Shown here piece after piece: positions 4,052 to 5,076 of a stretch of 5,076 nt of DNA. Both the position numbers and the translations under genes were made by a program. The DNA is from Hyphomicrobiales bacterium (lineage in GTDB: Bacteria; Pseudomonadota; Alphaproteobacteria; Rhizobiales; Aestuariivirgaceae). How positions within the stretch are numbered: the first letter of the stretch is position 1; each line of letters starts with the position of its first letter. Below the pieces are notes generated by a model, which was not told the DNA's origin, searched no databases, and saw nothing but the letters and a program-made list of their open reading frames with translations. The stretch lies in assembly GCA_027051995.1 (NCBI GenBank), contig JALUFY010000102.1:1-5076 (forward strand), read 5' to 3'.

Positions 4052-4138
<87 letters not shown>

Positions 4139-4207
4139 TCCGTTTTTTCCAAGGACGGAATACCGCCCCTAACTCATTGAAATTATTGGATGCTTAATAA
4201 CCCCATT

Positions 4208-4226
4208 GATCGGACATTTTCCGATC
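4208..4226. repeat. Inverted repeat upstream of the integrase gene
   Basis: GATCGG (4208-4213) and CCGATC (4221-4226) form a perfect 6-bp inverted repeat around a 7-base AT-rich loop, running directly into a tandem repeat. In this position it may be a binding site for an excisionase or for a regulator of the integrase. No convincing sigma-70 promoter was found in the 122 bp between the tRNA and the integrase, so the integrase may have relied on transcription from the tRNA promoter. Confidence 0.45.
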
Positions 4227-4248
4227 TTGGTACAAATCTTGGTACAAA
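4225..4248 (+). repeat. Tandem 12-bp repeat, two perfect copies of TCTTGGTACAAA
   Basis: Two adjacent identical 12-mers (4225-4236 and 4237-4248) end in the A-rich part of the integrase ribosome binding site. Paired short direct repeats between a tRNA attachment site and the integrase gene are typical integrase arm-type or excisionase sites. Here that role is inferred from position only. Confidence 0.6.
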
Positions 4249-4260
4249 AGGAACCGGGAT

Positions 4261-5010
4261 ATGTGGGGTCTGCATCTCAAAAAACGTGGTGACTGGTGGC
4301 ACTACTACCGGGCAACACCGGTTGAATTTCGCGATATTAAGGAGAAACGGATTATCAGTTTCTCGCTCAAGACCCGAGATTTCTCCGAGGCGAAGCTAAG
4401 AGCGGCTCAAATTTCAATTGATTTGGAAAGTGAATGGCGAAAAGCCAAAGAGCGTGGAATATCGCTATCCTCACAAAATCTCGCCGAACGATATAAGGCC
4501 TCATCAGTAATCCAAAAAGCAAACGGACTTGACCCTAAGTCTGCCGTTTCCTTTTCCGATGAGGAGCTACTCAAACGGCTTAGAATTTTGATTCTAGGAG
4601 AGCATCCCGTCAATGAGCAAAAGGCCATTTTGGGACTGGTTGACCAACCGAAATTATCCTTGGGAGATGCATTCGATCGCTTTTGGGAATATATCAAAGA
4701 CGAATGGATGCGACTTTCCCATGACCAGCAACGCACCAAACAAAATATTTACCTTAAGTCCATTCGTAACTTTGAAAAAGTTGTTGGCAAAATCCCCCTC
4801 TATGAAATTGAACGCAAACATGCCCTTAAGTTTCGCAGCTGGTGGCTGGAACGGGTAAACAAGGAAGGCCTAAAACCCTATACCGGCAATCGGGAAATGA
4901 ATTCCCTCAGACGCCTTATCACCGTAAACTACGACATAGACTCTATGTCCGGCAATGTCCCGGAGGATGTTGAAAAAGGAGGGGCGGCGTTGCCCGCCTT
5001 GAGCGTGTAA
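4261..5010 (+). pseudogene. Tyrosine recombinase/integrase, truncated: catalytic domain missing
   Basis: A 249-residue open frame matching the N-terminal half of a tRNA-targeting phage/island integrase. Residues 2-60 (WGLHLKKRGDWWHYYRATP and on) look like the arm-binding N-terminal domain (DUF6538 type). Residues about 131-226 resemble the SAM-like core-binding domain, ending in NREMNSLRRLITVNYDID. Such integrases are usually 400 residues or more and carry an R...HxxR...Y catalytic domain; none of that is present. The last 20 or so residues, after about residue 229, look foreign and become GC-rich, ending at a TAA inside the next gene's leader. The start has a good ribosome binding site (AAAAGGA, 4246-4252) 8 bases upstream. 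Codon use is much AT-richer than in the chromosomal genes, showing transfer. The protein cannot recombine DNA; it might still bind att DNA. A shortened but expressed regulator is an alternative. Confidence 0.85.
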
Positions 5011-5047
5011 GCTCGGGGTGATTCATCCAACGAAGGAGAGCAACGCC
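4981..5047 (+). promoter_or_regulatory. Structured 5' leader with competing hairpins and possible pseudoknot
   Basis: Hairpin A: GGCGG (4983-4987) pairs with CCGCC (4994-4998), extendable by two G-U pairs, with loop CGTTGC (4988-4993). Hairpin B: CCTTGAGC (4997-5004) pairs with GCTCGGGG (5011-5018) with two G-U pairs; it shares bases with A, so they compete in full form. The whole loop of A is complementary to GCAACG (5040-5045), which lies between the ribosome binding site and the start codon of the next gene; counted without A, the match is 8 bp (GGCGTTGC with GCAACGCC). This would allow a pseudoknot or a long-range helix controlling translation. Position and context recall the published radC RNA motif found upstream of DNA-handling genes in proteobacteria, but that match is from memory and not verified. 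The integrase remnant ends inside this leader. Confidence 0.55.
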
Positions 5048-5076
5048 ATGACCAAGACTAACACGAGCCGCCCCAC
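5048..5076 (+). CDS. Start of an unidentified island gene (3' end outside window)
   Basis: ATG at 5048 is preceded by a strong ribosome binding site, AAGGAG at 5033-5038, nine bases upstream. Only nine full codons are visible (MTKTNTSRP), too few to identify a family. The GC-rich codons differ from those of the integrase remnant, and the structured leader suggests an accessory gene of an integrative or conjugative element. The sequence beyond the window end is needed to say more. Confidence 0.55.

What the first reader, a model, noticed from the sequence alone, without database searches (positions are those of the whole stretch)
4981..5047. Leader whose hairpin loop is fully complementary to the spacer between ribosome binding site and start codon
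The 6-base loop CGTTGC of a GC-rich hairpin is the exact complement of GCAACG just before the ATG at 5048, with an 8-bp match if the hairpin opens. A second hairpin overlaps the first. Such nested, mutually exclusive pairings next to a strong ribosome binding site are hard to explain by chance and suggest a cis-regulatory RNA, perhaps of the radC RNA type or an undescribed relative controlling mobile-element genes.
Basis: partly seen in the sequence, partly recalled or inferred. Interest (0 to 1): 0.75.

Follow-up and report, generated by a model that had tools for sequence, protein, structure and literature searches.

The report
Jumping-gene leader that hides its start
This is the left end of an IS256-type jumping gene whose messenger RNA is predicted to fold back so that part of the element's own end covers the ribosome landing site, likely keeping the jumping enzyme quiet when transcription runs in from a neighbouring gene; related elements in several bacterial phyla keep the same pairing with different letters.

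Summary
In detail: GGCGTTGC (4986-4993) is fully complementary to GCAACGCC (5040-5047), directly before the ATG at 5048. The "leader" is the left end of an IS256-family insertion sequence (terminal repeat from 4951) that interrupts an integrase-like ORF beside tRNA-Leu; the contig ends nine codons into the transposase. The match is the base of a long-range stem enclosing the second hairpin; the first hairpin is not supported by covariation. In 30 of 32 distinct leaders of related elements, at most 5% of shuffles pair as well with the start region. Arm sequences differ between branches but stay complementary within each element. The 5' arm is an inner box of the extended terminal repeat, also seen in altered form at most right ends. 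Where the two ends differ, the start-codon arm follows the left end at 38 of 40 positions. Most likely this is fold-back inhibition of transposase translation, as known for IS10 and IS200. My searches found no such description for IS256. A DNA operator is the main rival. The window matches neither radC RNA nor, above chance, any Rfam family except the tRNA. Nothing was tested at the bench.

The parts
4951..4974 (+). Left terminal repeat GGCAATGTCCCGGAGGATGTTGAA of an IS256-family element; first base of the IS taken as 4951
   Evidence: Identical 24-mer at one other place in the genome, contig C188; similar repeats at both ends of relatives
4986..4993 (+). 5' arm GGCGTTGC, also the inner box of the extended terminal repeat
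   Evidence: Fold; related box at the same distance in right ends of relatives
4995..5020 (+). Inner hairpin, arms 4995-5004 and 5011-5020
   Evidence: Fold; the 9-bp consensus hairpin pairs in 98.9% of cells of 21 leaders, with G-U/G-C exchanges
5033..5038 (+). Shine-Dalgarno-like AAGGAG
   Evidence: Read from the sequence
5040..5047 (+). 3' arm GCAACGCC, ending directly at the start codon
   Evidence: Fold; pair counts; leader-to-start duplex reached by 1 of 500 shuffles
5048..5076 (+). First nine codons (MTKTNTSRP) of the transposase ORF, cut off by the contig end
   Evidence: alignment with annotated IS256-family transposase starts
4261..4950 (+). Integrase-like ORF interrupted by the IS; its open frame runs into the IS to 5010
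   Evidence: Pfam DUF6538 over cut-off, Phage_int_SAM_5 just under cut-off

Best explanation
The leader is the left end of an IS256-family insertion sequence in which an inner box of the terminal repeat is complementary to the bases just before the transposase start codon, so a transcript carrying both is predicted to fold back and would block translation of the transposase. Shown: the IS end, the complementarity, and its maintenance with changed sequence in relatives. Predicted by folding: the stem encloses a hairpin and makes the Shine-Dalgarno and start region costlier to open. Inferred: transcripts entering from flanking genes carry both arms and are repressed, while the element's own transcripts either start downstream of the 5' arm or are released by an antisense RNA. 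This would keep transposase low wherever the IS lands in a transcribed gene, as here inside an integrase-like ORF read in the same direction.
For: Window fold z -3.43, 0 of 200 shuffles. 30 of 32 distinct leaders reached by at most 25 of 500 shuffles, against 1 of 14 other gene starts. 98.0% of cells paired in 21 leaders, three pairs changed on both sides (0 of 500 shuffles), 32-42% when slid. Twelve different 5' arms pair with their own 3' arm at 92 of 96 positions against a mean of 3.89 of 8 for mismatched arms (arms read out by hand). The start-side arm follows the left box at 38 of 40 positions where left and right boxes differ. Opening -15..+3 costs a median 11.3 kcal/mol with the leader against 4.9 without it. 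A model of 21 leaders finds L116 and L115, which were not in it, at E 2e-6 and 6e-6. G-U pairs that exchange with G-C in the inner hairpin point to RNA. Precedents: ISPpu9 (PMC8450116, passages); IS10 and IS200 (titles in the reference list of PMC2965389).
Against: No bench data. A DNA inverted repeat would show most of the same covariation, and the outer stem in the 21 leaders has no G-U pairs. L117 (60 of 500) and L091 (26 of 500) do not pass the shuffle test; own leaders rank first in only 5 of 13 swaps. The model of 21 leaders misses L091, L094, L096, L098, L112, L113, L117, L121 and L125 at E up to 1. Five of eight outgroup IS256 leaders show nothing. No convincing promoter between the arms: 9 of 32 leaders, not the window. 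In four close leaders (L008, L090, L106, L107) one pair of the stem is a C-A mismatch.
Confidence: 0.7

Rival explanations
1. DNA operator: the box before the start codon is a third, inverted binding site for the transposase, which represses its own transcription or organises the left end, and RNA pairing is a by-product.
For: A related box lies at both ends at the same distance from the repeat (mean 6.00 of 8 identities against 3.98 elsewhere), so it is probably a DNA site. IS256-family transposases bind subterminal sites through an N-terminal domain (PMC7780238, passages).
Against: The start-side copy is nearly exact to the left box (155 of 160) while the right box agrees at 120 of 160. The start-side arm is locked to the start codon in arms of many different sequences, and in some leaders the match runs on through the Shine-Dalgarno (L096, L099, L107). 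The inner hairpin keeps G-U pairs.
Confidence: 0.18
2. Antisense-controlled leader: the conserved structure mainly serves an antisense RNA that opens the fold-back by binding the 5' arm, as proposed for Asr9 of ISPpu9.
For: In the distant IS256-family element of Mycolicibacterium (L125) the Rfam sRNA family Ms_AS-8 matches the antisense strand, 377-306, covering the 5' arm 331-348 but not the 3' arm 398-414. The window has one terminator-like hairpin on the minus strand, 4998-4983. ISPpu9 is a precedent (PMC8450116, passages).
Against: No Ms_AS-8 match in the window or in the nine other loci scanned. No transcript data here.
Confidence: 0.08
3. No regulation: shared ancestry of a GC-rich IS end and a chance match.
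For: Most outer pairs never vary among the 21 close leaders.
Against: Different arm sequences remain complementary in distant elements.
Confidence: 0.04

Closest known systems
Fold-back control of IS10/Tn10 transposase (Davis, Simons and Kleckner 1985; title seen only in the reference list of PMC2965389; mechanism recalled)
   Same: IS-internal complementarity near the left end is predicted to cover the transposase ribosome binding site in transcripts that come from outside
   Different: Another IS family; here the 5' arm coincides with an inner terminal-repeat box and the pairing is kept with different letters across branches; read-through specificity not shown
ISPpu9 5' untranslated region with antisense sRNA Asr9 (PMC8450116, passages)
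   Same: A leader structure buries the transposase ribosome binding site; weakening it raised a reporter 26-fold there; an antisense RNA may open it
   Different: Different transposase (the paper's text has no mention of IS256); two sRNAs shown there, none shown for the window
IS200 transposase leader (Beuzon 1999; title seen only in the reference list of PMC2965389; rest recalled)
   Same: RNA secondary structure represses transposase synthesis
   Different: Unrelated element; structure not compared here
radC RNA (Rfam; description recalled)
   Same: Leader of mobile-element-linked genes in alphaproteobacteria (recalled)
   Different: No match of the window even at E up to 10

Membership tests
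IS256-family insertion sequence | Terminal inverted repeats of the family type at both ends | tested here: met
   Window left end 4951-4974 and C188 right end share the 24-mer; relatives have both ends
IS256-family insertion sequence | Target duplication of about 8 bp | tested here: inconclusive
   By eye in 9 of the 15 relatives with both flanks in view; not testable for the window copy, whose right end is not on the contig
IS256-family insertion sequence | IS256-family (Transposase_mut) transposase | tested here: inconclusive
   4 of 4 relatives over the NCBIfam IS256 cut-off and 5 of 5 over the Pfam PF00872 cut-off; the window holds only nine codons and no PF00872 match was found in the genome
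Fold-back inhibition as in IS10 | Upstream leader complementary to the ribosome binding site and start region | tested here: met
   sequence and folding only
Fold-back inhibition as in IS10 | Native promoter starts between the arms, so native mRNA escapes | tested here: inconclusive
   No promoter-like site in 4900-5076; 9 of 32 leaders beat 95% of shuffles, not the window
Fold-back inhibition as in IS10 | Read-through transcripts are poorly translated | not testable with these tools
   Needs reporter assays
radC RNA | Match to the Rfam covariance model | tested here: not met
Ms_AS-8 antisense RNA | Match to the model on the strand opposite the leader | tested here: not met
   No match in the window; match in L125 only, 1 of 10 relatives scanned

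The most novel reading that the evidence does not exclude
IS256-family elements use one terminal-repeat box for two jobs: as DNA it helps mark the element's ends, and as RNA it is a built-in antisense that seals the transposase start codon. Left box, right box and start-codon arm change together as the element diversifies, tying end recognition to translational silencing across Proteobacteria, Actinobacteria and Firmicutes, with antisense RNAs such as Ms_AS-8 acting as the release.
Probability: 0.35. Interest if true: 0.7.

Novelty: new variant of a known kind. Interest (0 to 1): 0.52.

Why it matters
IS256-family elements are widespread and reshape many bacterial genomes, and how their transposase is kept low is less clear than for IS10 (general knowledge). 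A fold-back leader that survives wholesale sequence change would be a general, testable control step and a marker for intact left ends. Its overlap with a terminal-repeat box would explain why that box and the start region change together.

Tried and rejected
radC and other Rfam families: nothing above chance in the window except the tRNA. Exact-pattern scan of viral contigs, BLAST of the leader against phages, and tblastn of one transposase against phages: nothing. Hairpin 1 with its loop as the pairing element: not supported by covariation. A sigma-70 promoter between the arms: not convincing. Other IS256 groups: of 8 outgroup leaders, L125 (0 of 500) and L126 (15 of 500) show a fold-back, L114 is marginal (28 of 500), and L128, L129, L131 (ISRm5), L132 and L133 do not (at least 141 of 500). 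Swap test of leaders: only partly discriminating. C188 as the other flank of the same copy: the bases flanking the two ends do not match, so probably another copy. The integrase match on C206 was not compared with the interrupted ORF.

Rows dropped before counts. Copies with the same leader core were collapsed (most of L013-L024 and L026, and L033, L035-L037, L041-L089). Not used: L025 (5' end replaced), L039 (leader disrupted); L108, L110 and L111 (start or reading frame not intact); L095, L097, L100, L102-L105 and L124 (fragments or no 5' end); L127 and L130 (no annotated start); L093, L109, L118-L120, L122 and L123 (same or nearly the same element as one already in the set). In one search, L090, L098 and L112 lacked an anchor (20 of 23 counted). 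Of 16 control genes one was too short and one of the 15 scored had a wrongly set start, so 14 count. L031 has ATT in place of the start codon; it was kept and left out, where L125 was added.

Full report
What the window holds. The window is a whole 5,076-base contig (C102) of a draft genome in 457 contigs. A tRNA-Leu gene at 4052-4138 is followed by an integrase-like ORF from 4261, with a DUF6538 match over its cut-off and a Phage_int_SAM_5 match just below its cut-off. At 4951 a terminal repeat begins, GGCAATGTCCCGGAGGATGTTGAA. The same 24-mer occurs at one other place in the genome, near the end of contig C188. There it looks like a right end: on the other strand the adjoining bases read ALDAHQARHAEISGIDQKRQAA-stop, and relatives' transposases end alike (for example ALDAH in L005). 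Both contigs end inside the element, as expected for a repeated IS. The DNA from 4970 to 5076 matches 41 plasmid records of Bradyrhizobium, Mesorhizobium, Acidithiobacillus, Croceicoccus and Nitrobacter, several of them annotated there as IS256-family transposase (ISNha10 in Nitrobacter), and nothing in the phage collection. Relatives have similar repeats at both ends; by eye 9 of 15 with both flanks in view have about 8-bp target duplications. Four of four transposases scanned are over the NCBIfam IS256 cut-off. So the finding's leader is the left end of an IS256-family element that interrupts an integrase-like ORF. The window holds only nine transposase codons.

The observation. GGCGTTGC (4986-4993) is the exact complement of GCAACGCC (5040-5047), immediately before the ATG at 5048. 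The minimum-energy fold of 4977-5060 uses this stem and encloses a 10-bp hairpin (4995-5020): -35.7 kcal/mol against a shuffled mean of -25.4, z -3.43, 0 of 200.

Is it conserved as a structure? L005-L009 came from the BLAST of the leader itself; the other relatives were collected through their transposases. In 21 aligned leaders (the window, 19 close relatives and L099) the long-range stem and inner hairpin pair in 98.0% of cells. Three pairs are changed on both sides, 0 of 500 shuffles reach that, and slid versions pair in 32-42%. RNAalifold returns the same two stems except for one outer-stem pair. Most outer pairs never vary in this close set, so the stronger evidence comes from distant relatives; the transposases of L098, L091, L113, L112 and L115 are 26, 35, 37, 44 and 57% identical to that of L006. 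L115 pairs GGGUGUCGAUC with GAUCGACACCC, L116 GGGUAUCGA with UCGAUACCC, L098 and L101 GGCGUAUC with GAUACGCC, L094 GGCGGUUCCGU with ACGGAACCGCC, L112 (Rhodococcus) GGCGGUCCC with GGGACCGCC, L113 (Sulfobacillus) CUAGCGAU with AUCGCUAG, and L096 GCAGUUCCUC with GAGGAACUGC. In these the 3' arm ends zero to two bases before the start codon, or overlaps it by one base (L113).

Statistics. For each of 32 distinct leaders I compared the duplex between -100..-28 and -18..+3 with 500 dinucleotide shuffles of the leader: 30 of 32 are reached by at most 25 shuffles; the exceptions are L091 (26) and L117 (60). Of 14 other gene starts from the same loci, 1 reaches that level. Twelve different 5' arms, one of them from the outgroup element L125, pair with their own 3' arm at 92 of 96 positions; mismatched arms pair at a mean of 3.89 of 8 (two of 132 combinations reach 8), and no permutation in 100,000 does as well. 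I read these arms out by hand at their best register, so that figure is optimistic; the shuffle test lets the shuffles choose their best register too. A swap test on energies is weaker: the own leader ranks first in 5 of 13, second in 5, third in 2 (the window among them) and 11th in 1. A covariance model of the 21 leaders finds L116, L115 and L101, which were not in it, at the right place with E 2e-6, 6e-6 and 0.002, and misses L091, L094, L096, L098, L112, L113, L117, L121 and L125 at E up to 1.

The 5' arm is part of the extended terminal repeat. At the same distance from the repeat, right ends carry a related box: mean 6.00 of 8 identities against 3.98 for the same search elsewhere in the right-end stretch, n=20; four of the 20 (L005, L030, L091, L107) stand out little or not at all. 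The box is therefore probably a DNA site as well. In these 20 elements the start-side arm agrees with the left box at 155 of 160 positions, and the right box agrees with the left at 120 of 160; at the 40 positions where the ends differ, the start-side arm sides with the left 38 times and with the right twice. The left box was located by its match to the start-side arm, which favours the first figure somewhat, and the 20 elements are mostly close relatives. This is what pairing within one transcript predicts, since the right end is not part of the leader; a generic third binding site would not need to copy the left end so closely.

How it would work. With the leader from -100 present, opening -15..+3 costs a median of 11.3 kcal/mol in 32 leaders, against 6.0 from -48 and 4.9 from -22. 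It is higher by more than 2 kcal/mol than the -48 form in 28 of 32 and than the -22 form in 30 of 32. For the window the values are 8.1, 3.7 and 3.9. Transcripts that enter the element from outside would carry both arms and be poorly translated. The direction fits here: the IS lies inside an ORF read in the same direction. Whether the element's own mRNA starts downstream of the 5' arm is open: a TTGAGC-16-TCGAAT pair recurs in a subset of alphaproteobacterial leaders, but only 9 of 32 leaders beat 95% of shuffles and the window does not.

Antisense lead. In the distant IS256-family element of Mycolicibacterium (L125), which also has a strong fold-back (0 of 500 shuffles), the Rfam sRNA Ms_AS-8 matches the opposite strand, 377-306, over the 5' arm (331-348) but not the 3' arm (398-414). 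An RNA of that kind would bind the 5' arm and could free the start region, as proposed for Asr9 of ISPpu9 (PMC8450116, passages). It was found in 1 of 10 relatives scanned and not in the window. Ms_AS-8 is named among RNAs with ribosome reads in M. smegmatis in PMC4974804 (one passage) and in two Mycolicibacterium prophages in PMC8190616 (one passage).

Comparison with what is known. RNA structures that cover a transposase start are known for IS10, IS200 and ISPpu9 (PMC8450116 passages; titles of Davis 1985 and Beuzon 1999 seen in the reference list of PMC2965389; details of IS10 and IS200 recalled). PMC2965389 describes 5' terminators in front of transposases as protection against outside transcription (passages). 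The IS256-family structural paper describes bipartite terminal repeats and junction promoters; the words translation and start codon do not occur in its text (PMC7780238, passages). Seven literature searches on IS256 or on transposase leaders (I saw listings, and passages of four of the papers listed) gave no description of a fold-back leader in the IS256 family; the library holds only open-licence papers. A 2005 paper notes a pseudoknot inside one Bifidobacterium transposase gene with IS256-family homologues, which is a different position (PMC1262725, passages). I therefore call this a new variant of a known kind.

Scope and limits. The transposase of the window's own copy is not on the contig, and no PF00872 match was found in the genome. 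Not all IS256 groups have the fold: L128, L129, L131 (ISRm5), L132 and L133 do not. RNA pairing and a DNA inverted repeat cannot be separated by sequence alone; G-U exchanges support RNA only in the inner hairpin.

Noticed in passing
4052-4950: An integrase-like ORF beside tRNA-Leu is interrupted by the IS; no catalytic integrase domain is on the contig. The genome has one Phage_integrase match, on C206.
   Followed up: partly
L002 1501-1625: Contig C188 ends inside a right end of the same type of IS, with an identical terminal repeat and a transposase-like C-terminus.
   Followed up: yes
4983-4998, minus strand: Terminator-like hairpin followed by CCTCCTTTTT on the strand opposite the leader; could end an antisense RNA.
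   Followed up: no
L125 306-377, minus strand: Rfam Ms_AS-8 sRNA lies opposite the 5' arm of an IS256-family leader.
   Followed up: partly
4981-4988 and 5067-5074: GGGGCGGC is also complementary to GCCGCCCC inside the first transposase codons; the longer window fold uses part of this.
   Followed up: no
Between the inner hairpin and the Shine-Dalgarno, e.g. L113, L116, L099, L107: A short AATCC motif recurs in this place, even in a Firmicutes element; role unknown, possibly part of a -10 element.
   Followed up: partly
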